Assembly: GCA_030834965.1 (NCBI GenBank)
Contig: JAUQWW010000059.1
Coordinates: 1 to 60,987 of the forward strand
DNA length: 60,987 nt
Origin: Gallionellaceae bacterium
GTDB lineage: Bacteria; Pseudomonadota; Gammaproteobacteria; Burkholderiales; Gallionellaceae
Direction: 5' to 3'
The notes under the pieces are model-generated. The model saw only the letters and a list, made by a program, of their open reading frames with translations. It searched no databases and was not told the origin of the DNA. The position numbers and the translations under genes are program-made. Below are positions 9,674 through 19,499 of this stretch, piece after piece. Positions within the stretch are counted from its first letter, which is position 1. Every line of letters begins with the position of its first letter.

Positions 9674-10211
9674 TCAGAACACGAGTGGCGCGATCTCTTC
9701 CACCATGCCGCCGATGAGATCGGGGTCGCTGTCCGGTGCAAGCACGCTGGCATCGCCCATCTGTCCGGTCAACTCCAGCTTGAATGTGTCGCCTGTCTTG
9801 TGCAGGCGCGATTTGCCGCCGCAGGCGCGGCAATAGACGTAATCGCCATCCTGCTGAGAGCGGCGCAACGCGATGGGTGCACTGCACGACGGACAGCTTT
9901 GCAGCGGCATGCCCGGCTCACTGTGTCCGACGATGTGCGCCAGATGTCCGGACGGACGCAACGCCAGAAAGCCTTTGCCGAGTCTGGCATCAACCTGTGC
10001 GCCCAGCTCATCGCCGATGATGGTGAAGGCGTTTTCCACCGGCATTCCCTTGCGGTAGGCGCGCGTGCTGGTCATCGCATCGAAGGCATCGGCGATGCTG
10101 ACGATGCGCGCCACTTCGGGTATGACCTCCCCGGCCAGCGCGTTCGGGTAACCGTTGCCGTCCGGCCGCCAAGCCGAGCAACGAGTTCAACAACGATTCC
10201 TTTTCAGTCAT
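9674..10211 (-). pseudogene. HD-GYP phosphodiesterase remnant
   Basis: An ATG at 10211 with a good AGGAG site opens the frame MTEKESLLNSLLGL, which then runs into nonsense. The adjacent +1 frame continues with RPDGNGYPNALAGE, the GYP motif of HD-GYP cyclic-di-GMP phosphodiesterases, then IVSIADAFDAMTSTRAYRKGMP, the family's last conserved helix, and a C-terminal tail with two CxxC pairs (CPSC, CRAC). The N-terminal sensor and the metal-binding HD residues are absent. An internal deletion appears to have joined the gene's start to its last third out of frame. The longest surviving frame is 146 codons (9674-10114). It is unlikely to be catalytically active. Confidence 0.75.
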
Positions 10212-10272
10212 GGCTGCATCTCCTGAACAGTAATTCCGGAAACCCCGGTTAGCTCCATGAATACCTCGCGCG

Positions 10273-10289
10273 CTCTGTGAGCTCTGTGG
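10273..10289 (-). repeat. CACAGAG-type dispersed repeat, copy 3
   Basis: On the minus strand this reads CCACAGAGCTCACAGAG, one mismatch from the copy at 3507. It lies in the 112-base spacer between the HD-GYP remnant and the ArsM-like gene. Confidence 0.6.
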
Positions 10290-10323
10290 CTTGAAGGATC
10301 ATGGAAGCGCCAGTAGGCACGCA

Positions 10324-11364
10324 TCAACAGCAGGCGCAACTCTCGCTGCCGTCTGTTTTGACATCAAAAGGCATCGCCGCGCCGCATCCCTCGAACAAGC
10401 CGTAATGCCGATCGAAATTGCCGATGAAATCGAAGTGCGGGGCAAAGCGCGTGTCCTGCAGCATGCGCCAGGTGTTGCCGCACACCGGGAACACGCGGCC
10501 AGTTTCGATGTGGTGATGCTTGTCCAGCACGAAACGCGATGGATGATCGGGGATGCTGCCGCGGTAGATCACCGCCTGGCCGTAGTCTTCGCACGCCGTT
10601 TCCAGGCCGTGAAGCTTGAACAGCCGATAGGTTGCCGAGAAAAACTTCAGGTTGCCCACGCGCGGCGCAAGCTTGGCATCGGTAATTTCCAGCGGACGGT
10701 CCTCGACCAGACGCGGGTCGGCGAAACCGTGGCGATGCGCGAGGCGGATGAAATCGTTCCAGTACAGCGCGCCCCCCAGGCATTCGCCATACAGCACCGG
10801 ATCGTCACGCACCGTTTCCGGCACGCGGCGGTCGGCATAGACATCGGAGAAATAGAACTCGCCGCCATTCTTCAACAGGCGGTACACGCCCCGCAGCACC
10901 GCATCCTTGTCCGGAGAAAGATTGACCACGCAATTCGACACGATGACATCGAAGCTGCCGGGTGCGAGATCCAGCGCGTCGAGTTTTTCGATATAGCCTT
11001 CCATAAAGCGCACATTGGCGTAGCCGAACTGTTCGGCGTGATAAGCGCGATGCTGTTCGGCCACCGCCAGTTGCTCCGGTGTCATGTCGACCCCGATGAC
11101 CTCTCCGGTCTTGCCTGCCAGCTGTGCCAGCGCATACACATCCCGCCCGGAACCGCTGCCCAGGTCGAGCACGCGAAGGCCTTCGAGCAAAGGCGGACAC
11201 ACCAGCCCGCAGCCATAATAGCGCGACAGCACTTCGGGGTGGACGCGTGCCAGCAGCGGCTTGAGCCAGCCGGGCGCCGCGCTGGCATCGCAGCAGGCGC
11301 TGGTTTTCAGGTCATCCGAATGTTGTAACTGCTTGCCGTAATAGTCCTGAACGATGTCATGCAT
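10324..11364 (-). CDS. arsM: ArsM-like SAM-dependent arsenite methyltransferase
   Basis: This 346-residue class I methyltransferase has the SAM-binding motif LDLGSGSGRD (residues 67-76) followed by the acidic end of strand 2 (GVDM, 91-94). Cysteines sit where ArsM enzymes bind As(III): the Cys24-Cys25 pair, Cys145 in SNCVVNLS and Cys195 in GECLGGALYW. The tail ends in CACC. ArsM enzymes transfer methyl groups from SAM to trivalent arsenic, the first step of arsenosugar synthesis. The role is supported by ArsS, TIGR04282 and TIGR04283 genes just upstream on the same strand. No ArsR regulator is next to it. The substrate is inferred from cysteine placement and context, not proven. Confidence 0.82.
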   Translation of the reverse strand: MHDIVQDYYGKQLQHSDDLKTSACCDASAAPGWLKPLLARVHPEVLSRYYGCGLVCPPLLEGLRVLDLGSGSGRDVYALAQLAGKTGEVIGVDMTPEQLAVAEQHRAYHAEQFGYANVRFMEGYIEKLDALDLAPGSFDVIVSNCVVNLSPDKDAVLRGVYRLLKNGGEFYFSDVYADRRVPETVRDDPVLYGECLGGALYWNDFIRLAHRHGFADPRLVEDRPLEITDAKLAPRVGNLKFFSATYRLFKLHGLETACEDYGQAVIYRGSIPDHPSRFVLDKHHHIETGRVFPVCGNTWRMLQDTRFAPHFDFIGNFDRHYGLFEGCGAAMPFDVKTDGSESCACC

Positions 11365-11431
11365 GATGTAGCCCTCGTCATTGAATGCGCTAAAGGTTTG
11401 TCGGGCAGATCAAAATTCCTTACACGAGCCC

Positions 11432-12178
11432 TTAACCGGGGTTAAAGGAACAGGCTGCATCCCGGGCGACAAAATGAAAATCCGCAAACCCGGCATGGGC
11501 TCGCTCGCCCGTGTTGTCGGTGTCCGAAGCGACCGAGAGCTGAATCATGCGCGCCTGCCCGGACCCGAACTCGGCGACCACATCCTGCTGCACATCATGG
11601 CGTGCGACGACCCACTTTCCTGCGTTGGCCGCACCGGACTCGGCCACGATCATGCGCGTGCGCTCGGTGTAGGCATTTGGCCTGCGTGTGCCGACCGCAT
11701 AGCGGTTGTCCCACACGTAGTTGAGCGCGGCATCCGGCACCGCATCGCCATAGATGCTGCGCGCCAGCTTGAGCCTGGTGCGGGTAATAAAGCCCAACTC
11801 GGAGGGCGGCAGGGTGAATGACACATACACGCGTGCGGCGTAATCATCGCCTGCCTTGGTCGCCATGTCCGCCTTGACCAGCGGCGCATCCACGCGCCAG
11901 CGCCAGCACAGCACCGGCGTGCGATGCAGATCGACTTCCACCGGACGCGCCAATAGCGCCATGCTCTGCTCGGCAGTCGCTTCGATTGCGGACACACCCT
12001 CCCAGTGCGTGAGCCGGTAATGAGTGGGCGGAATTTTCTTGTCCAGTTGCACGACCTGCCAGGGTGCGGGCACCTTCGCGGACTCATGCTCAAAACGATC
12101 CAGCCATACGACTTCGGCCGCCTGCACGCCGCATGACATCGCCAGCAAGCACGCCATCCCGGCCTTACGCACTTTCAT
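11432..12178 (-). CDS. DUF3047 exported protein
   Basis: The product has 248 residues with a Sec signal peptide (about residues 1-20, ending GVQAA) and matches DUF3047, a family of periplasmic proteins of unknown function. Characteristic stretches are LCWRWRVDAPL near residue 90, GDDYAARVYVSF near 110, and the final SDTDNTGERAHAGFADFHF. The domain probably adopts a beta-sandwich fold (inference). Its ATG overlaps the stop of the TIGR04282 glycosyltransferase as ATGA, so it is translated with the arsenosugar genes. Whether it takes part in that pathway is unknown. Confidence 0.85.
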   Translation of the reverse strand: MKVRKAGMACLLAMSCGVQAAEVVWLDRFEHESAKVPAPWQVVQLDKKIPPTHYRLTHWEGVSAIEATAEQSMALLARPVEVDLHRTPVLCWRWRVDAPLVKADMATKAGDDYAARVYVSFTLPPSELGFITRTRLKLARSIYGDAVPDAALNYVWDNRYAVGTRRPNAYTERTRMIVAESGAANAGKWVVARHDVQQDVVAEFGSGQARMIQLSVASDTDNTGERAHAGFADFHFVARDAACSFNPG

Positions 12179-12789
12179 GTTTGCCCCATTCCCCCTGTCA
12201 ACAACTTCAAATCCTGCGGCTCATCCACATCGTGCAGCATCCGGCCAACATGCACCTTCCAGTCCAGCCTTCCGATGCGTGAAATCGTGATGCCGGCGAC
12301 CGCATCGGTGCTCCACGGCATGTCGCTGAACAGCAAGGCGCTGAACTGCGCCAGCCCCAGCAGCGCATAGCCGCCATCACGGGTGCAATGAATGACGGCA
12401 GCGTTTTCATGCAAGGCTTGCGCTGCCTCGCGCAGCAAGTCCGCCGACATTTCCACGCAGTCCGCACCGATCAGCACAACGGCTTCTCCGCGCGCCACTG
12501 CCCGTTCCGCAGCACGTGCCATACGCGCGCCGAGATCGCCCGCACCCTGATCCGAAATCTCGATGCCGTCCGGCAGATGGGTGTCGCGCCACGCGGCATC
12601 ATCGATGGCCGGTGTGGCACTCAGCTCCACGCTGCCGATGCCGGCAGCGAGCGCCTCATCCAGGGTGCACAACAGCATGTGCCGCGCCAGCGCCGCTGCG
12701 CCTGCCGCACCCAGCGCGGGAATCAAGCGTGTCTTGGCAAAGCCGGGTTGGGGCGCCTTGGCGAAGAGGATTATGCGCACGGGTTTCAC
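12175..12789 (-). CDS. TIGR04282 family glycosyltransferase (DUF2064)
   Basis: This 204-residue protein begins with a nucleotide-binding segment VRIILFAKAPQPGFAKTRL, the hallmark of the DUF2064/TIGR04282 family. The family is related to the CofC/GT-A nucleotidyltransferases and is named for arsenosugar biosynthesis clusters. The GADC motif near residue 110 is the likely metal/nucleotide site. I chose the GTG at 12789 because it overlaps the stop of the preceding glycosyltransferase (GTGA), and the family begins directly at this motif. The longer frame upstream is a shadow of that gene. Confidence 0.87.
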   Translation of the reverse strand: MKPVRIILFAKAPQPGFAKTRLIPALGAAGAAALARHMLLCTLDEALAAGIGSVELSATPAIDDAAWRDTHLPDGIEISDQGAGDLGARMARAAERAVARGEAVVLIGADCVEMSADLLREAAQALHENAAVIHCTRDGGYALLGLAQFSALLFSDMPWSTDAVAGITISRIGRLDWKVHVGRMLHDVDEPQDLKLLTGGMGQT

Positions 12790-13460
12790 CGGTACCGCCC
12801 CGCCAGTTTCGCCGCATCCGCGCCGCGCCAATACGCCCAGCGCAGCCGCCACATCAGCACGATGGTGCGCCACACACCGCGCGTCTCCCAGCGGCGGCCG
12901 GAGGTGAGCACGCAGGCTGCAATGCAGGCCGGGCGCGAAAGCGCTTTCAGGCGCTTGCTCATTTCGATATCTTCCATCAGCGGCTGCTCCGGGAAGCCGC
13001 GCAGTTGCTCGAACACATCGCGGCGCACGAAGATCGCCTGATCGCCGGTGGCGATGCCGGTCAGGCGCGAGCGCCAATTCATCATGCGGCTGACCACGCG
13101 CAACATGAACGGCCGCCCGCTGATGCACACATCGAAACGCCCCCAGCAATGATCGTTGGCCTCGAGCGCTTGCGTGATGTGATGCACTGCGCACTGCGGC
13201 AGGCGCGTGTCGGCATGCAGGAACAACAGCACCTCACCGTTGGCGAGCGCTGCGCCGGCATTCATCTGGCGCGCCCTGCCGCGTTCCGCCTGCATCACGG
13301 TGAACCCTGCCGCTTCGGCGAGCCGGGCCGAACCATCCGTGCTGCCGCCATCGGCAAAGATCACTTCGCAGCCCGCGCGCCGGAACGGCAGCACATGTGC
13401 AATCAGCTCCGGCAATTGCGCGGCTTCGTCGAGCATGGGCACGATGATGGAGAGTTGCAC
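12786..13460 (-). CDS. TIGR04283 family glycosyltransferase 2
   Basis: The 224-residue product is a GT-A fold family 2 glycosyltransferase. LSIIVPMLDEA opens the nucleotide-binding fold, DGGSTDGS follows near residue 38, and the DxD-like HADT occurs near 82. MEDIEMSKRLK near 160 is the usual acidic catalytic region. TIGR04283 enzymes are assigned to arsenosugar clusters, where they would act on sugar intermediates. The GTG at 13460 gives a normal family start. The frame could be extended upstream to 13643 only by reading through a palindromic intergenic repeat (PHPNPLPQAGEG), so I reject that extension. The ribosome binding site at 13460 is weak. Confidence 0.85.
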   Translation of the reverse strand: MQLSIIVPMLDEAAQLPELIAHVLPFRRAGCEVIFADGGSTDGSARLAEAAGFTVMQAERGRARQMNAGAALANGEVLLFLHADTRLPQCAVHHITQALEANDHCWGRFDVCISGRPFMLRVVSRMMNWRSRLTGIATGDQAIFVRRDVFEQLRGFPEQPLMEDIEMSKRLKALSRPACIAACVLTSGRRWETRGVWRTIVLMWRLRWAYWRGADAAKLAGRYR

Positions 13461-13494
13461 GTTAATCCGAAACTCGCATAGCGATTCGTTCGCG

Positions 13495-13518
13495 CCCTCG
13501 CCCGCTTGCGGGAGAGGG
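13495..13518. repeat. GC-rich palindromic intergenic repeat
   Basis: CCCTCGCCCGC and GCGGGAGAGGG form an almost perfect hairpin, followed by TTGGGGTGAGGG. When translated it gives the PHPNPLPQAGEG peptide that pollutes many predicted N-termini in proteobacteria. It sits in the spacer before the TIGR04283 gene. Confidence 0.65.
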
Positions 13519-13570
13519 TTGGGGTGAGGGAAACAGGCATCGCGGGGGGACAAATTATTTACCATGCCTG

Positions 13571-15721
13571 TTAGCCTCGTTTCCAGGCGTGATAGCGCGC
13601 CAGCCAGGCCAGCACCTGTTGCGGCGCATGGGCGCGCTTCCATGCTCCGGCTGCGTATTTGTTCGCTTCCGCCAGCGTCGGGTAGATATGGATGGTGCCG
13701 AGTATCTTGTTCAACCCCAGCCCGTGCTTCATCGCCAGCACGAATTCCGCCAGCAGGTCGCCGGCGTGTTCGCCGGCGATGGTGACGCCGAGTATCCTGT
13801 CCTTGCCGGGCACCGTCAGCACTTTGACGAAACCCTGCGCTGTGCCATCGGCGATGGCGCGGTCGAGATCGTCGATGCCATATTTCGTGACCTCGACCGC
13901 GATGCCCTGCTCGCGCGCCTCCTGCTCGTTCAGGCCGACGCGCGCGACTTCCGGCTCGATGAAAGTCGCCCAGGGGATGACCGAGTAATCCACCCTGAAC
14001 TTCCTGAAACCGCCGAGCAGCGCGTTCACGGCCGCATACCAGGCCTGATGCGCAGCGGTGTGGGTGAACTGGTACGGCCCGGCGACATCGCCCGCCGCGA
14101 AGATGTTCGGGTACAACGTTTCCAGGTACGCATTGGTGGTGACGGTGCGCTGGGTGGGGATGCCCAGCTCTTCCAGGCCGAAGCCATTCAGGCGCGCGCT
14201 GCGGCCGACCGCGCAGATCAGCGCATCGAATTCGATGCGGCGCGACTGGCCGTCATGCTCCACCATGATGTATTTGTGCTCACCTTCCTTTCCGCAACGC
14301 ACCGCCTTGTAGCCGGTCAGCACCTCCACCCCGTCAGCGGCGAGTGATGCGCGCGCCAGTTCCGAGACTTCCTCATCCTCGCGGATCATGATGCGCGGCG
14401 CCATTTCGATTTGTGTGACCCGCGATCCCAGCCGCGCGAAACTCTGCGCCAGCTCGCATCCGATCGGCCCGCCGCCCAGCACCACCAGGTGCTCGGGCGG
14501 CGCATCCAGTTCGGCGAAGGTTGACCAGAGCGTGTCGCTGGTGACGTAGCCCGCTTCCTCCAGCCCGGGCAGCGGCGGCACGAAGGGACGCGCGCCGGTG
14601 GCGATGACGATGCTGCGCGTGGTGAGGGTCTGCATCGTGCCGTCGTTGAGCTTGACCTCCACCGTCCACGGATCGGTGATACGGGCATGGCCTTGCAGCA
14701 CTTCCACGCCGAGGCTGGTATAACGCTCCACGCTATCGTGCGGGGCGACGTTGCGGATCACTTCATGCACGCGCGCCATCACTTTGCGGAAACTGAAATC
14801 GGGTGCGCCCGCATTCAGACCGTAGCGTTCGCCGTGACGGATCTGCTGCGCCAGCCTGGCGCTCCTGATCAGCGCCTTGCTTGGCACGCAGCCGTAGTTC
14901 AGACAGTCGCCGCCCATCCTGTGCGCTTCGATCAGCGTGACTTTGGCTTTGACTGCCGCCGCGACGTAGGCCGACACCAGCCCCGCCGCGCCGCCGCCGA
15001 TGACGATCAGGTTGCGGTCGAATCTGGCGGGGCGTTTCCATTTGGCATACACGCGGCGGCGTTGCAGCCATGCGGTGATTTTTTTGCCCAGCATCGGAAA
15101 CACGCCCAGCAGGACAAAAGAAAACAGCAATCCCGGCGACAGGATGCCGGACAGGCTTTGCAACTGCGCCAACTGCGTGCCCGCGTTCACGTACACCAGC
15201 GTTCCCGCCAACATCCCAACCTGGCTCACCCAATAGAAGGTGCGCGTGCGCATCGGTGTCAGCCCCATCAGCAGATTGATGAGAAAAAAGGGAAAGATCG
15301 GCACCAGGCGCAGCGTGAACAGATACAGCGCGCCATCCTTGGCAACACCGTCGTTGATCGTTTTCAGCTTGTCGCCGAAACGCTGCTGCACGGCATCGCG
15401 CAGCACGAAGCGCGAGGCGAGGAATGCCAGCGTTGCGCCGATGCTGGAAGCGAACGACACCAACAGTGCGCCCATCACCAGCCCGAACAATGCGCCCATG
15501 GCCAGCGTCATGACCAGTGCGCCAGGCAATGAAAGTGCAGTAACGATCACGTACAGCACAAAACCGGCAGCCGCAACCATCCACGGCGACTGCGCCTTGA
15601 GCGCGGCGAAATCGTGCTGGCTCTGCTTGAGTGATTCCAGCGTCAGGTAACGCTCCAGGTCGAAAGCAAAGAAGCTGACGACCAGCGCACCGATCAACAG
15701 AATGAGCAGTATGCGCTTCAT
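13571..15721 (-). CDS. TVP38/TMEM64 - FAD disulfide oxidoreductase fusion
   Basis: This 716-residue protein has two parts. Residues 1 to about 225 form a TVP38/TMEM64 (DedA-related) membrane domain with the typical GALFGLVMGALLVSFASSIGATLAF helices and the FPFFLINLLMGLTPM loop. From about 237 it is a class I pyridine nucleotide-disulfide oxidoreductase like MerA or dihydrolipoamide dehydrogenase: FAD-binding IGGGAAG, redox-active GGDCLNYGCVPSKAL near 272, NAD(P)-binding VVLGGGPIGCELA, and C-terminal HIYPTLAEA with the catalytic His-Glu pair. The ATG at 15721 overlaps the arsS stop as ATGA. Its substrate is unknown. Coupling to ArsS suggests membrane-linked thiol or arsenic redox chemistry (inference). 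Confidence 0.88.
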   Translation of the reverse strand: MKRILLILLIGALVVSFFAFDLERYLTLESLKQSQHDFAALKAQSPWMVAAAGFVLYVIVTALSLPGALVMTLAMGALFGLVMGALLVSFASSIGATLAFLASRFVLRDAVQQRFGDKLKTINDGVAKDGALYLFTLRLVPIFPFFLINLLMGLTPMRTRTFYWVSQVGMLAGTLVYVNAGTQLAQLQSLSGILSPGLLFSFVLLGVFPMLGKKITAWLQRRRVYAKWKRPARFDRNLIVIGGGAAGLVSAYVAAAVKAKVTLIEAHRMGGDCLNYGCVPSKALIRSARLAQQIRHGERYGLNAGAPDFSFRKVMARVHEVIRNVAPHDSVERYTSLGVEVLQGHARITDPWTVEVKLNDGTMQTLTTRSIVIATGARPFVPPLPGLEEAGYVTSDTLWSTFAELDAPPEHLVVLGGGPIGCELAQSFARLGSRVTQIEMAPRIMIREDEEVSELARASLAADGVEVLTGYKAVRCGKEGEHKYIMVEHDGQSRRIEFDALICAVGRSARLNGFGLEELGIPTQRTVTTNAYLETLYPNIFAAGDVAGPYQFTHTAAHQAWYAAVNALLGGFRKFRVDYSVIPWATFIEPEVARVGLNEQEAREQGIAVEVTKYGIDDLDRAIADGTAQGFVKVLTVPGKDRILGVTIAGEHAGDLLAEFVLAMKHGLGLNKILGTIHIYPTLAEANKYAAGAWKRAHAPQQVLAWLARYHAWKRG

Positions 15722-16686
15722 GCTGCACCGGCTTTCAATGCGCCGCCGCAACTGCTGCCCTGCCCTGCGGCGCAGCCGTAACAATGACCCGCCACGCGGA
15801 TCGGGCGATCTTGCAGGTCCTGGTTCAACAGATCGCGCAGATGCGGGCGCCCCATGCCGGGCAAAGCCATTCCCAGTTGCTGGTTGAAATCGCAATCGTA
15901 CAGAAAACCCTGCCAGTCCACGCTGACCAGGTTGCGGCACATCACGGTGTCGAGATTGGCGGCCGCGAAGTTTTCATGCAGCAGGTGCAGGTAATCGTTG
16001 AACTGCCCTTTGGAGATGAGCATGGAGCCGAAGCGCTGGATCGGCATGTTGGCGATGACAAACAACTGGTTGAACACGATGCCGAAATGTTCGGACAACT
16101 CGCGCTGATAGCCGGCCTGCAGTGCGGACTGATCCGGCGGAAGAGATGGCCCCTGCGGATTGAACACCAGATTCAGCACCAGACTGCTGTCCGGCTGGCC
16201 GTAGCCCAGCGCATTGAGTTTTTGCAAGGCGAGGATGCTTTTGTCGAATGCGCCCTTGCCGCGCTGCCTGTCCACATTGTCCGGCAAGTAGCAGGGCAGC
16301 GAAGCGACGATCTCCACTCTGTTGGCAGCGAGGAATTCCGCCAGGCTTTCCTGTCCCGGCTCGAACAGGACGGTGAGATTGCAGCGGTCGATCACCTTGC
16401 AGTCCTGTGCCCGTGCGGCACGCACCAGTCCGCGAAAGCCCTCGTGCAGCTCCGGTGCGCCGCCGGTCAGGTCGAGCGTGTGCAGATCGCGCGCCGCCAG
16501 CACTTGCGGGATCAGCGCCAGCGTTTCGCTGTCCATCATCTCGGTGCGATTGGGGCCGGCGTTGACGTGGCAATGCACGCAACTCATGTTGCATCGGTAG
16601 CCGAGATTGACTTGCAGGATCTCCAGCGCGCGGCGGCGCAGCGCGGGAAATTCGGTGGCTTGCAGCAAGGGCAGGGTAGCGTGCAT
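15718..16686 (-). CDS. arsS: Arsenosugar biosynthesis radical SAM protein ArsS
   Basis: The 322-residue product is a radical SAM enzyme with the cluster-binding Cys32, Cys36 and Cys39 in CNMSCVHCH, the GGAPEL SAM-contact motif near residue 85, and the C-terminal cysteine-rich tail (HCYGCAAGQGSSCGG) of the ArsS family with its DUF3641 domain. ArsS is proposed to transfer a 5'-deoxyadenosyl group to methylated arsenic, making the arsenosugar precursor. I chose the ATG at 16686 with GGAG five bases upstream. An ATG 30 bases earlier has no comparable site. Some relatives are selenoproteins; no in-frame UGA is seen here. It probably begins the arsenosugar operon. Confidence 0.9.
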   Translation of the reverse strand: MHATLPLLQATEFPALRRRALEILQVNLGYRCNMSCVHCHVNAGPNRTEMMDSETLALIPQVLAARDLHTLDLTGGAPELHEGFRGLVRAARAQDCKVIDRCNLTVLFEPGQESLAEFLAANRVEIVASLPCYLPDNVDRQRGKGAFDKSILALQKLNALGYGQPDSSLVLNLVFNPQGPSLPPDQSALQAGYQRELSEHFGIVFNQLFVIANMPIQRFGSMLISKGQFNDYLHLLHENFAAANLDTVMCRNLVSVDWQGFLYDCDFNQQLGMALPGMGRPHLRDLLNQDLQDRPIRVAGHCYGCAAGQGSSCGGALKAGAA

Positions 16687-16790
16687 GATCTCTCCGCCTG
16701 AATGAACGGGTTGCACCCGGAGTCGGCACAGGGTATCAAAACCTTACAATGGATCGCACAGGTGCGCAACGACCCGAGCGGACATGCTGG

Positions 16791-17399
16791 CTAGTGCGCG
16801 CCCCCCCACAGTGAATTGACACGCGCGTCCCGTCCGCAGCTTGACCGGTAGAATTTATAGCGGATGGGATTCTTCTTGTAGTAATCCTGGTGATATTCCT
16901 CGGCGAGGTAGAAAGCACCGGCGGCGGCGATCTCGGTATGAATGCGCGGGAAGCGCCCGCTTTTTTCCAGCGCCTCCTTGCTGGCAAGCGCCAGTTTCCG
17001 CTCCGTCTCGTTCTGGTAGAAGATCGCGCTGCGGTATTGCGAGCCGATATCGCAGAATTGCCCATCCTTGACCGTGGGATCGATGTGCCGCCAGAAGTAA
17101 TCCAGCAGCTGCTGGTAACTGATGCGGCGCGAGTCGTAGCTGACGCGCACTGCCTCGGCATGCCCCGTGCCGCCCTGGCCGACCTGCTCGTAAGTCGGAT
17201 TTGCCAGCGTTCCGCCGCTGTAACCTGATTCCACCGCAAGCACGCCGTCCAGTTTCTCGAAGTCGGCCTCGATGCACCAGAAACAGCCGCCCGCGAAGAG
17301 GGCGCTGGCAGGAGGCGTGGATGACACCTCCGCTGCCGGCAAGGATTGCGCGCCGAAGAAGCTGCACGAGAGCAACATCAAACCATGCAAGGTCTTCAT
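16791..17399 (-). CDS. msrA: Peptide-methionine (S)-S-oxide reductase MsrA, exported
   Basis: MsrA reduces the S-epimer of methionine sulfoxide in proteins. The 202-residue protein has an N-terminal Sec signal peptide (about 1-22), so it should act in the periplasm. The catalytic Cys39 sits in AGGCFWCIE, and SGYSGG, the H-AE-V core (GTGHAEAVRV) and the EYHQDYYKKNP C-terminal segment are present. Its ATG overlaps the msrB stop as ATGA, so the two reductases are made together. The reducing partner is not in the window. Confidence 0.94.
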   Translation of the reverse strand: MKTLHGLMLLSCSFFGAQSLPAAEVSSTPPASALFAGGCFWCIEADFEKLDGVLAVESGYSGGTLANPTYEQVGQGGTGHAEAVRVSYDSRRISYQQLLDYFWRHIDPTVKDGQFCDIGSQYRSAIFYQNETERKLALASKEALEKSGRFPRIHTEIAAAGAFYLAEEYHQDYYKKNPIRYKFYRSSCGRDARVNSLWGGAH

Positions 17400-17899
17400 G
17401 TGCGTAACGCCGGTAACGACCCGCCTTCCGGCACGAACTCCAGCGCCAGCCCGTTATTGCAATAGCGCAATCCGGTCGGCTTCGGGCCGTCCTTGAACAC
17501 ATGCCCCTGATGCCCGCCGCAGCGCGCGCAGTGGTATTCGGTGCGCGGCCAGAGCAGTTTGAAATCGGTCTTGGTGGCGACGGCTTCGGGCAAGGGCTGC
17601 CAGAAGCTCGGCCAGCCCGTGCCGCTGTCGTATTTGTGCGCCGAGGAAAACAGCGGCAGGAAACATGCGGCGCAAATGAATGTGCCGGCGCGTTTTTCCC
17701 GGTCGAGCGGGCTGCTGTGCGGCGGCTCGGTGTCGTCCTCGAACAGCACGGCGTAGCGATCGGCAGGCAGCAAGGCCTTCCATGCCGATTTGCTCTTGAT
17801 CAGCGTTTTCATGTTGGCGGCAACCTCCTTGGCTAAAGCGGGAAATGCCAGCAACAGCGGCACCCCGGCCAGATATTTGATGAACGTTCTGCGCTTCAT
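17396..17899 (-). CDS. msrB: Peptide-methionine (R)-S-oxide reductase MsrB, Tat signal
   Basis: MsrB reduces the R-epimer of methionine sulfoxide. This 167-residue form starts with a twin-arginine signal (KRRTFIKYL, then a hydrophobic stretch to ALA at residue 23). The zinc ligands Cys76, Cys79, Cys124 and Cys127 are present, with catalytic Cys147 in RYCNNG. Export by Tat suggests it folds with zinc before crossing the membrane (inference). I chose the ATG at 17899 because GGGAG lies six bases upstream; a start 18 bases earlier is possible. It is coupled to msrA. Confidence 0.93.
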   Translation of the reverse strand: MKRRTFIKYLAGVPLLLAFPALAKEVAANMKTLIKSKSAWKALLPADRYAVLFEDDTEPPHSSPLDREKRAGTFICAACFLPLFSSAHKYDSGTGWPSFWQPLPEAVATKTDFKLLWPRTEYHCARCGGHQGHVFKDGPKPTGLRYCNNGLALEFVPEGGSLPALRT

Positions 17900-18305
17900 G
17901 CCTGGCTCCCTTCTCAAGTGGAATGATCCACCCGCGGTCTGCGTACAGAAATGATACTCGCCGCACCGGCCGGGTCAACCGGACTGACGGAGTGGATATG
18001 GGCGCGCACTGTATCGGCTCGGCCGGCCGCTCGCGCAATTGGCATGGATGGTGCGGGCTGTGCCGGGGAAGAATGTGCCGCCTTGTTTTTCACATCATCA
18101 AGCAAACGGTGGACAGCGCCTTCGATTGCAAGTTCCGGCGCCAGCACGATCCGCCGCAGCCGCCCCGGAGACGGAACTCACGCGTCTTTGCCGGCTTCCT
18201 CATTCTTGCCGCCGGCATGGGCGCGGGCGAGGGAGCGAAAGTTTGCGCTCCAGCGGCTCCGACATCAATTGCGTGGCTTCACGGCAATGCTGGGTTCAAA
18301 ACCGC
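17900..18305. other. 406-bp gap without a recognisable gene
   Basis: Between msrB and the FAD oxidoreductase there is no frame I can assign. A 77-codon GTG frame on the minus strand (17914-18147) and two plus-strand frames overlap one another. They have ordinary composition but no family resemblance. The high GC content and several interrupted frames suggest decayed coding DNA, but I cannot name a parent gene. Confidence 0.45.
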
Positions 18306-19421
18306 TCATGTTTTCCTCTCCGCCAGCACATCATGCTTGCGCATGAAGCGGCGGTCAATCCAGTTTTTCCACTGCCACACCCAATGCCCCTGCGCACTGA
18401 ACGCACCCCACGAAGCGATGGCGTGTCGCGGACCGGTCGTCAACAGATACAGCGATTTCCTGCGCGGGTGATAACTTCGCATCGCCTGCCCGGCCAGGCT
18501 CGCCAGCAGATTGTGGGCAAGCACCGGCCCCGCTAACACGGCATGCACACCGGACCGCGGCAGGCGAATGTCCGCGCGCACGCACACGTCACCGGCGGCG
18601 AGCACGTTGGGATGCGACAGGCTGCGCTGCTGCGCATCCACCAACAGATAGCCCAGATCATCCCGCGCCAGGCCGGTCTGCGCCAGCCATGCGGCCGGGC
18701 GCGCGCCGGTCGCCGCGATGACGCAATCAGCTTGCAGCAGCTCGCCCGTGGAAAGGCGCAGCCCTTCGGCAACGCCCACAGCCTGTCCCTGATACAGGCG
18801 AATACCGCGCAGTTGCAGCAGCGTCCGGGCGCGCCGCTTGACGCCGTCAGCGTGCCCCGGCAACAGGCCGTTAGCGGAAGCAACCAGTGCCACCTGGGCG
18901 GAGCTTGAGTTTTGTGCGAACGCGTAGCGCGCGGCAAACGCCAGTTCGACCCCGGCCGCACCGCCCCCCACGACCACCAGCCGGTAACCGGCGTGCTGCG
19001 ATGCGGCCTTGAGTATGTCCGGCCAGCGCTGCACAAAATCGCCCAGCGGCTTCACCGGCAGCAGGCGTTCATTCGCTGCCTGCAACATCGAGGTATCGGT
19101 CTCGCTGCCCGGATCGAGCGACAAGACGTCATAGCCCAGACGCGTGCCATCCGAGAGCGTAACCGTGCGGCACTCGGCATCAATGCCGGTGACGCAAGCC
19201 AGCACCATGCGCACGCCGGCCATTTCGGCGAGTGGCCGCAGATCGATGCGGCACTCTGCCAGCGTGTAATGCCCCGCCATCCAGCCTGGCAACATGCCGG
19301 AGTAGATCTGATACGGGCTGGGTGTAACCAGCACGGCTTCGACATCCGGCTTATCTTTTGCCAGTGCGTGCAGCACACTGAGCTGCGCATGGCCTCCGCC
19401 CGCCAGAATCAAATAAGGCAT
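18306..19421 (-). CDS. FAD-dependent oxidoreductase, SelD-associated type
   Basis: The 371-residue protein has an N-terminal FAD-binding motif LILAGGGHAQLSVL (residues 4-17), where the GGGHA variant is typical of the TIGR03169 group usually fused to or next to selenophosphate synthetase SelD. An NAD(P)-binding LVVVGGGAAGVELA follows near 145, then AATGARPAAWL and VLAAGDVCV near 265. It is related to type II NADH dehydrogenases and sulfide:quinone reductases. The ATG at 19421 is preceded by GGAG at six bases; upstream in-frame ATGs are less likely. No selD is visible in this window. The electron donor and acceptor are unknown. Confidence 0.82.
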   Translation of the reverse strand: MPYLILAGGGHAQLSVLHALAKDKPDVEAVLVTPSPYQIYSGMLPGWMAGHYTLAECRIDLRPLAEMAGVRMVLACVTGIDAECRTVTLSDGTRLGYDVLSLDPGSETDTSMLQAANERLLPVKPLGDFVQRWPDILKAASQHAGYRLVVVGGGAAGVELAFAARYAFAQNSSSAQVALVASANGLLPGHADGVKRRARTLLQLRGIRLYQGQAVGVAEGLRLSTGELLQADCVIAATGARPAAWLAQTGLARDDLGYLLVDAQQRSLSHPNVLAAGDVCVRADIRLPRSGVHAVLAGPVLAHNLLASLAGQAMRSYHPRRKSLYLLTTGPRHAIASWGAFSAQGHWVWQWKNWIDRRFMRKHDVLAERKT

Positions 19422-19499
19422 GATGAACTCCGCATGAATGATGGCAACCATCACCCGGCAATGGCCGGAGCATGCCTCCGGCTAAATCAGACAGCCGCA

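What the first reader, a model, noticed from the sequence alone, without database searches (positions are those of the whole stretch)
10324..16686. Compact arsenosugar-type cluster in a betaproteobacterium
Six consecutive minus-strand genes combine ArsS, an ArsM-like methyltransferase, and the TIGR04282 and TIGR04283 glycosyltransferases, the families named for arsenosugar biosynthesis. A TVP38-oxidoreductase fusion and a DUF3047 protein are included. ATGA/GTGA overlaps link arsS to the fusion and link TIGR04283, TIGR04282 and DUF3047. The extra genes could be new pathway components.
Basis: partly seen in the sequence, partly recalled or inferred. Interest (0 to 1): 0.7.

Follow-up and report, generated by a model that had tools for sequence, protein, structure and literature searches.

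The report
Arsenic-sugar gene cluster with membrane module
A bacterium carries a compact set of genes that very probably builds sugar compounds containing arsenic, and comparison with many genomes suggests which neighbouring genes do the unknown later steps and shows that some relatives use a different, unnamed enzyme for the key step.

Summary
Six minus-strand genes run arsS, a TVP38-FAD fusion, TIGR04283, TIGR04282, DUF3047, arsM, with three 4-nt overlaps as described. ArsS, TIGR04283 and TIGR04282 pass NCBI's cut-offs. The methyltransferase matches a solved ArsM with all four cysteines.

The proposed survey was run. In 399 genomes of the same order, the fusion is in 99 of 119 ArsS+ and 8 of 280 ArsS- genomes; DUF3047 in 89 of 119 and 30 of 280. 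The extra genes are linked to arsS but not dedicated to it: with DUF547 and TIGR03169 they also stand in genomes without ArsS. TIGR04283, TIGR04282, ArsM and a nucleoside phosphorylase (MTAP) track ArsS instead, which suggests a route: ArsM, ArsS, MTAP, TIGR04282 (nucleotidyltransferase), TIGR04283 (glycosyltransferase).

Against a simple arsenic reading, only 30 of 119 ArsS+ genomes have a detectable ArsM.

Unexpected: an unnamed radical SAM family (rSAM2) takes ArsS's place beside the same partners; ArsS is in 1 of 31 rSAM2 genomes. No product was tested.

The parts
15718..16686 (-). arsS: radical SAM enzyme, ArsS family (TIGR04167), 322 aa, C-terminal Cys-rich DUF3641 domain
   Evidence: 453.7 bits, cut-off 300; PF12345 182 bits; eight Cys (C32 C36 C39 C250 C265 C302 C305 C313) in all of 121 ArsS aligned
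13571..15721 (-). TVP38/VTT membrane domain fused to a class I pyridine-nucleotide disulfide oxidoreductase, 716 aa; redox Cys pair C273/C278, His678/Glu685
   Evidence: the named residues invariant in 10 aligned fusions; ATGA overlap with arsS
12786..13460 (-). TIGR04283 family GT2 glycosyltransferase, 224 aa, GTG start inferred from the domain start
   Evidence: (285.9 bits, cut-off 182)
12175..12789 (-). TIGR04282 family (DUF2064) CofC-like transferase, 204 aa; probable nucleotidyltransferase (inferred)
   Evidence: (192.1 bits, cut-off 134; also TIGR03552 CofC 40.6 bits, cut-off 105), (3cgx, E 1e-12); GTGA overlap
11432..12178 (-). DUF3047 protein, 248 aa, signal-peptide-like N terminus (my reading), beta-sandwich fold
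   Evidence: PF11249 232.8 bits; model pLDDT 90.3; ATGA overlap
10324..11364 (-). arsM: arsenite methyltransferase, 346 aa, conserved C24, C52, C145, C195
   Evidence: 5evj, residues 4-329, E 1.5e-105
13495..13529 (.). REP-like GC-rich palindromic element in the gap between the fusion and TIGR04283
   Evidence: one copy in the window; the kind of element is recalled
18306..19454 (-). TIGR03169 (Nterm_to_SelD) flavoprotein, upstream on the same strand; family found in 38 of 121 arsS neighbourhoods
   Evidence: (354.9 bits, cut-off 310)
16791..17399 (-). msrA, directly upstream of arsS (104-nt gap); probably a neighbour only, seen in 2 of 121 arsS neighbourhoods (the window included)
17396..17917 (-). 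msrB, overlapping msrA; as for msrA

Best explanation
The cluster encodes an arsenosugar-type pathway plus a membrane module. Proposed route: ArsM methylates arsenite to dimethylarsenite (known for the family). ArsS joins it to the 5'-deoxyadenosyl group of SAM (known for the family). A nucleoside phosphorylase of the MTAP kind, encoded elsewhere in this genome but beside arsS in some others, swaps adenine for phosphate and gives 5-dimethylarsinoyl-ribose-1-phosphate (inferred). TIGR04282, a CofC-like nucleotidyltransferase rather than a glycosyltransferase, activates the sugar phosphate (inferred). TIGR04283, a GT2 enzyme, moves the arsenic-ribose onto glycerol, a glycerolipid or another acceptor (inferred). 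The TVP38-FAD fusion is a disulfide/thiol redox enzyme anchored to a scramblase-like membrane domain; it keeps arsenic trivalent at the membrane or moves a lipid-linked product (inferred). DUF3047, probably secreted and with a fold shared by sugar-binding modules, binds sugar in the periplasm (inferred). These last two belong to a module (fusion, DUF547, DUF3047, TIGR03169) that also exists without ArsS and was recruited here.
For: Family membership. Link of extra genes to arsS in an evenly drawn sample of 399 genomes. Order, orientation and spread: of 121 arsS neighbourhoods, TVP38 domain in 94 (24 of 28 families), TIGR04283 in 86 (25), TIGR04282 in 78 (24), DUF3047 in 41 (18), DUF547 in 49 (16), with every DUF3047, DUF547, TIGR04283 and TIGR04282 hit on arsS's strand. 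arsM-TIGR04282-TIGR04283-arsS-MTAP in a row on one strand in two Polaromonas loci; a third (L219) has the same order with no arsM hit. MTAP in 7 of 120 order neighbourhoods and 7 of 25 named loci with arsS; MTAP also beside rSAM2 (L258). Both PNP-family genes of the own genome match the MTAP model, the better at 337 bits. Module split. DUF3047 fold. COG0398 DedA proteins as possible scramblases and their fusion to this oxidoreductase: PMC10127716, passages.
Against: Only 19 of 119 ArsS+ genomes have a window-type ArsM and 30 of 119 any ArsM found by this search (at most 5 candidates a genome were scored), so ArsS often works without ArsM, or its substrate comes from outside or differs. G251, of the same family, has the cluster without ArsM. 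The fusion is not exclusive: 34 of 74 classified named fusion loci lie in genomes with neither ArsS nor a local rSAM2. MTAP is a salvage enzyme of wide occurrence and is not in the window. The beta-sandwich of DUF3047 is as close to ciliary doublet-microtubule proteins (Z 13-14) as to sugar enzymes, and middling Z is common. One metagenome study groups DUF3047 with polyamine and purine nitrogen scavenging (PMC3597751, passages). No step beyond ArsS rests on chemistry.
Confidence: 0.6

Rival explanations
1. An ordinary arsenosugar cluster (ArsM, ArsS, two transferases) that happens to sit in a shared transcription unit with unrelated membrane and periplasmic genes.
For: Fusion, DUF547, DUF3047 and TIGR03169 also occur together without ArsS; the fusion type is already known and was discussed without arsenic.
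Against: 99 of 119 ArsS+ against 8 of 280 ArsS- genomes carry the fusion, and the TVP38 domain is near arsS in 24 of 28 families; 5 of the 8 are rSAM2 genomes. Genes placed by accident do not recur so.
Confidence: 0.2
2. The product is an arsenosugar phospholipid: TIGR04283 glycosylates a membrane glycerolipid, the TVP38 domain moves it across the membrane, DUF3047 receives it in the periplasm.
For: TVP38/COG0398 proteins may be phospholipid scramblases (PMC10127716, passages); DUF3047 has a fold shared by carbohydrate-binding modules; a paper on arsenolipids of Synechocystis is in the reference list of PMC12159101 (not read).
Against: No lipid enzyme is among the families recognised in the cluster; the fusion lives without ArsS in other genomes.
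Confidence: 0.3
3. ArsS in most of these bacteria acts on something other than dimethylarsenite (for example a selenium compound) or on organoarsenic taken up from outside, and the window is a minority case with ArsM.
For: 89 of 119 ArsS+ genomes show no ArsM in the search; TIGR04167 bears a selenoprotein name (PMC9312934 table passage).
Against: The window itself has ArsM in the cluster; 24 of 28 window-type ArsM hits (E under 1e-90) lie within 10 kb of arsS or rSAM2 (places); no SelD over the cut-off in this genome.
Confidence: 0.2

Closest known systems
Cyanobacterial arsenosugar pathway, ArsM + ArsS of Synechocystis (PMC8552651 passage; ArsS biochemistry cited as Cheng 2021 in PMC12159101, that paper itself not read)
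   Same: ArsM and ArsS families; TIGR04282/TIGR04283 are the families NCBI names for arsenosugar biosynthesis
   Different: Betaproteobacterial; all in one gene row; ArsM is not the NCBI AsSugarArsM type (87.3 bits, cut-off 400); adds TVP38-FAD, DUF3047, TIGR03169
Arsinothricin cluster arsQML (PMC8552651 passages)
   Same: ArsM plus a radical SAM enzyme forming an As-C bond
   Different: ArsL transfers the aminocarboxypropyl group; no ArsS; the window ArsM misses the arsinothricin ArsM cut-off (145.5 of 500)
COG0398 DedA/TVP38 fused to pyridine nucleotide-disulfide oxidoreductase (PMC10127716 passages)
   Same: Same domain fusion
   Different: The paper links it to aerobic metabolism; 'arsen' does not occur in its main text
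Mercuric reductase MerA
   Same: Same flavoprotein superfamily
   Different: TIGR02053 372.2 of 454.45 bits; no cysteine near the C terminus (the MerA C-terminal Cys pair is recalled)

Membership tests
ArsS (TIGR04167) | Score over NCBI's equivalog cut-off | tested here: met
   453.7 of 300 bits
ArsS (TIGR04167) | Radical SAM CX3CX2C and C-terminal Cys-rich domain | tested here: met
   C32-C36-C39 and C250, C265, C302, C305, C313, each in all of 121; PF12345
ArsS (TIGR04167) | Adenosylates dimethylarsenite | not testable with these tools
   needs enzyme assay
ArsM arsenite methyltransferase | Similarity over nearly the whole length to a solved ArsM, with its four catalytic cysteines | tested here: met
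   5evj over residues 4-329 of 346; SAC, GCG, SNC, GEC cysteines aligned; four cysteines needed for catalysis in most ArsM: PMC8552651 passage
ArsM arsenite methyltransferase | NCBIfam cut-offs for PRK11873 (263) or AsSugarArsM (400) | tested here: not met
   171.5 and 87.3 bits; so an ArsM by homology, not a member of these two NCBI models
TIGR04283 / TIGR04282 'arsenosugar' transferases | Scores over NCBI's cut-offs | tested here: met
   285.9 of 182 and 192.1 of 134 bits
TIGR04283 / TIGR04282 'arsenosugar' transferases | Glycosyl or nucleotidyl transfer on an arsenic sugar | not testable with these tools
   no assay
DUF3047 (PF11249) | Score over Pfam's gathering score | tested here: met
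   232.8 of 27 bits
TVP38-disulfide reductase fusion | VTT domain and both oxidoreductase domains in one frame with a CX4C redox pair | tested here: met
   C273 and C278 invariant in 10
MerA mercuric reductase | TIGR02053 cut-off | tested here: not met
   372.2 of 454.45 bits
Carbohydrate-binding module (for DUF3047) | Sugar-binding beta-sandwich | tested here: inconclusive
   Z 14.6 to a glucuronyl C5-epimerase domain, about 10-11 to CBMs, but also 13-14 to ciliary doublet-microtubule proteins; binding not tested
rSAM2 as a member of ArsS | TIGR04167 cut-off | tested here: not met
   48.4 of 300 bits; profile match 96.9% over 159 core columns only

The most novel reading that the evidence does not exclude
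Arsenic-carbon bond formation for arsenosugar-like products has two radical SAM solutions. Besides ArsS, an unnamed family of about 300-320 aa (rSAM2; CX3CX2C plus a CYSCFxxGASC C terminus that echoes ArsS) stands beside ArsM and, where it could be read, mostly the TVP38-FAD fusion, with TIGR04282 and TIGR04283, and in one or two loci MTAP, DUF547 or a Pst-type transporter. It replaces ArsS in one family of the window's order and in scattered members of the class. Because both enzymes share the same partners, these partners define the unknown later steps: phosphorolysis, nucleotidyl activation, glycosyl transfer and membrane handling.
Probability: 0.45. Interest if true: 0.8.

Novelty: new variant of a known kind. 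Interest (0 to 1): 0.6.

Why it matters
How the adenine of adenosyl-arsenic is replaced by glycerol to give arsenosugars is, as far as I recall, unsolved. The comparison names concrete candidates for each later step (MTAP, TIGR04282, TIGR04283), separates them from a recruited membrane module (TVP38-FAD, DUF547, DUF3047, TIGR03169), and offers compact gene rows that can be expressed in a laboratory strain. The rSAM2 clusters offer an independent test of the same route. It would also place arsenic-sugar synthesis in many proteobacteria, not only in algae and cyanobacteria, which matters for arsenic cycling.

Tried and rejected
Selenium reading: no SelD over the cut-off in the genome (72.9 of 125 bits). 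Acr3 arsenite pump: no match in the genome; other arsenic resistance genes and mobile genes were not looked for. MerA reading of the fusion: cut-off missed. Scan of 10100-18200: 3 promoter-like sites (1.4 expected) and 16 terminator-like sites (7.2 expected), none used. The REP-like palindrome is single in the window.

Errors of mine: one search used a wrong family (TIGR04345 is the OvoA C-terminal domain). In some searches the TIGR04282 query was out of frame, so those two counts for it are void; the TIGR03169 count (94 loci) took in other flavoproteins; one search corrected both. The first gene callings let wrong-frame or over-long ORFs win; one search replaced them. One search was not needed.

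Papers: ten searches. No held paper has TVP38 with ArsS, ArsM with radical SAM and Nitrosomonas, or two of DUF547, DUF3047, ArsS, arsenosugar, DUF2064, TVP38 except the pair ArsS/arsenosugar. The library lacks most subscription papers, so this is weak evidence of novelty. Papers were seen as passages (PMC12159101, PMC8552651, PMC9312934, PMC8801600, PMC3597751, PMC10127716, PMC12608789) or as search listings; none was read whole. PMC12608789 and PMC8801600 added nothing to the argument.

Limits and rows dropped: of 123 ArsS hits over the cut-off I fetched 120 neighbourhoods; left out were the window itself (added separately), G195 (3-kb contig) and G313 (partial hit); many of the 120 are cut by contig ends. 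The fusion search scored at most two candidates a genome and used E 1e-110, so split genes count as absent; seven hits to the FAD half alone were dropped from its 114 genomes. The named loci are the best 80 of a capped list of 590 stretches. Of 55 named fusion loci without local arsS, 50 were sent and 49 searched. Fisher values treat genomes as independent, which they are not.

Full report
What is there. On the minus strand, 16686 to 10324, six genes follow one another: arsS, a 716-aa TVP38-FAD fusion, TIGR04283, TIGR04282, DUF3047 and arsM. ArsS, TIGR04283 and TIGR04282 pass their NCBI cut-offs. ArsM misses the PRK11873 and AsSugarArsM cut-offs but matches the solved arsenite methyltransferase 5evj over residues 4-329 with all four cysteines aligned. 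Upstream on the same strand lie msrA, msrB, a TIGR03169 flavoprotein and NhaD.

Organism. A betaproteobacterium is therefore right; the species is not known to me.

Association test. In 399 genomes drawn evenly from the order, ArsS is over the cut-off in 119, DUF3047 in 119, and the fusion in 107 (three of them partial: G153, G195, G305). The fusion is in 99 of 119 ArsS+ and 8 of 280 ArsS- genomes (Fisher 8e-63); DUF3047 in 89 of 119 and 30 of 280 (1.5e-36). These values ignore relatedness. Seven ArsS+ genomes have neither. Locally, in 120 fetched arsS neighbourhoods plus the window, out of 121: TVP38 94, FAD domain 92, both in one frame 78, TIGR04283 86, TIGR04282 78, DUF547 49, DUF3047 41, TIGR03169 38, ArsM 19; 16 neighbourhoods show none of the families scored. 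Families with such loci, of 28: TVP38 24, FAD 24, TIGR04283 25, TIGR04282 24, DUF547 16, DUF3047 18, TIGR03169 14, ArsM 11. In some loci TVP38 and the FAD protein are separate neighbouring genes upstream of arsS, which supports a shared role of the two domains. An unnamed protein that I read as metallophosphoesterase-like, without Pfam or NCBIfam match, is in 41 of 120 loci.

Two modules. I fetched the best 80 named fusion loci (of a capped list of 590 stretches) from a collection of one genome per species: beta-, gamma- and alphaproteobacteria and Desulfobulbaceae/Desulfobacterales. ArsS is local in 25. Of the other 55, 49 genomes could be searched: 14 have ArsS elsewhere, 35 do not; one of these 35 has a local rSAM2. 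Near the fusion, TIGR04283 (18 of 19), TIGR04282 (18 of 19), ArsM (13 of 13) and MTAP (7 of 7) occur where ArsS is in the genome or rSAM2 in the locus; the one exception, L176, is a 5.8-kb contig of a 1.9-Mb MAG. DUF3047 (8 of 18), DUF547 (10 of 21) and TIGR03169 (13 of 24) are about as frequent where ArsS is absent. So the core tracks arsenic chemistry and the 'extra' genes are a module that can live alone. The 80 were chosen by similarity to the fusion, so these are not population frequencies; in the evenly drawn order sample at least 104 of 107 fusion genomes have ArsS or rSAM2.

Later steps. In Polaromonas (L190, L192) arsM, TIGR04282, TIGR04283, arsS and MTAP lie on one strand in a row; L219 has the same without an arsM hit. 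MTAP is in 7 of 120 order neighbourhoods (within 0.9 kb of arsS's start in three) and in 7 of 25 named loci with arsS, and beside rSAM2 in L258. The own genome has two PNP-family genes, one a good MTAP match (337 bits), on other contigs. TIGR04282 resembles CofC guanylyltransferase weakly (40.6 of 105 bits) and a putative nucleotide-diphospho-sugar transferase, 3cgx, and ends in a DVDxPxDL motif that I recall from nucleotidyltransferases. Hence the inferred order: adenosylation, phosphorolysis, nucleotidyl activation, glycosyl transfer.

Fusion and DUF3047. The oxidoreductase half keeps the CX4C redox pair and a C-terminal HxYPTxxE in all 10 aligned fusions and has no cysteine near its end, so it should work like a lipoamide or glutathione type reductase, not MerA. 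The fusion type is already described for COG0398 DedA proteins, which may be phospholipid scramblases (PMC10127716, passages). The DUF3047 model is confident (pLDDT 90.3, 18 sequences): a beta-sandwich nearest to a glucuronyl C5-epimerase domain (Z 14.6) and ciliary doublet-microtubule proteins (Z 13-14), then carbohydrate-binding modules (Z about 10-11). With its signal-peptide-like start this fits a periplasmic sugar binder, but the fold alone does not fix the function.

The rSAM2 variant. Eight fusion genomes in the order sample lack ArsS. In four of them (L155, L156, L157, L159) the fusion follows ArsM and an unnamed radical SAM gene, with TIGR04282 and TIGR04283 upstream in three, and a Pst-type transporter downstream in two, one of these with DUF547; a fifth (G146) has fusion and Pst genes together (L158) and ArsM next to rSAM2 at another place. 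Two more (L160, L161) have fusion, DUF3047 and TIGR03169; the last (L162) is a 3.9-kb contig. rSAM2 scores 48 of 300 bits for ArsS and best 93 of 380 for another model. It is in 27 of 61 genomes of that family, in 4 of 229 genomes of the class, in four families, and in a Methylophilaceae MAG (L252). It lies beside ArsM in 10 of 11 distinct loci read. ArsS is absent from 25 of 25 rSAM2 genomes searched and present in 1 (G303) of the other 6, against 119 of 399 in the order. So rSAM2 looks like a stand-in for ArsS.

Evidence against. Window-type ArsM is in 25 of 399 genomes, 19 of them ArsS+; with weaker hits 30 of 119 ArsS+ genomes have some ArsM. Most ArsS+ genomes in this sample therefore lack a detectable methylating partner, by a search that scored at most five candidates a genome. 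The window belongs to the complete minority.

Verdict. Observation confirmed, interpretation partly supported. A new variant of a known kind of cluster, with a testable proposal for the unknown later steps and an unexpected radical SAM stand-in.

Noticed in passing
L155 5976-11647; L156 6485-12124; L157 7469-12427; L159 6187-11793; L252; L257-L264: ArsM beside an unnamed radical SAM family (rSAM2) and, in most loci read, the TVP38-FAD fusion; ArsS in 1 of 31 rSAM2 genomes.
   Followed up: partly
L157-L159, L177, L215, L225: A PstS-like protein near the arsM/fusion cluster (L158: near the fusion only); in L157-L159 with two permease genes and an ATPase gene. Could be an arsenate or phosphate uptake partner.
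   Followed up: no
41 of 120 arsS loci, e.g. L070, L093, L110: A metallophosphoesterase-like protein (my reading) without Pfam or NCBIfam match; in 36 of the 41 it starts 0.9-2.6 kb after arsS's start.
   Followed up: partly
L036, L055, L062, L076, L105, L107, L129, L139, L140, L149 and others: A sigma-70-family-like factor (15 of 120 loci, 11 families; upstream in 14) and a small zinc-finger anti-sigma-like protein (10 of 120) near arsS; identities are my reading of the sequences.
   Followed up: no
L113, L120, L123, L125, L130, L131, L133, L135, L144, L147: FAD reductase and TVP38 as separate genes, in that order, upstream of arsS: an unfused form of the window's fusion.
   Followed up: no
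L001 (G000:C29:8583-9308): The genome has an OvoA-like C-terminal methyltransferase domain (356.6 bits), i.e. may make ovothiol.
   Followed up: no
window 16791-17917: msrB and msrA overlap and stand directly upstream of arsS; one other arsS locus (L107) has the same arrangement.
   Followed up: no
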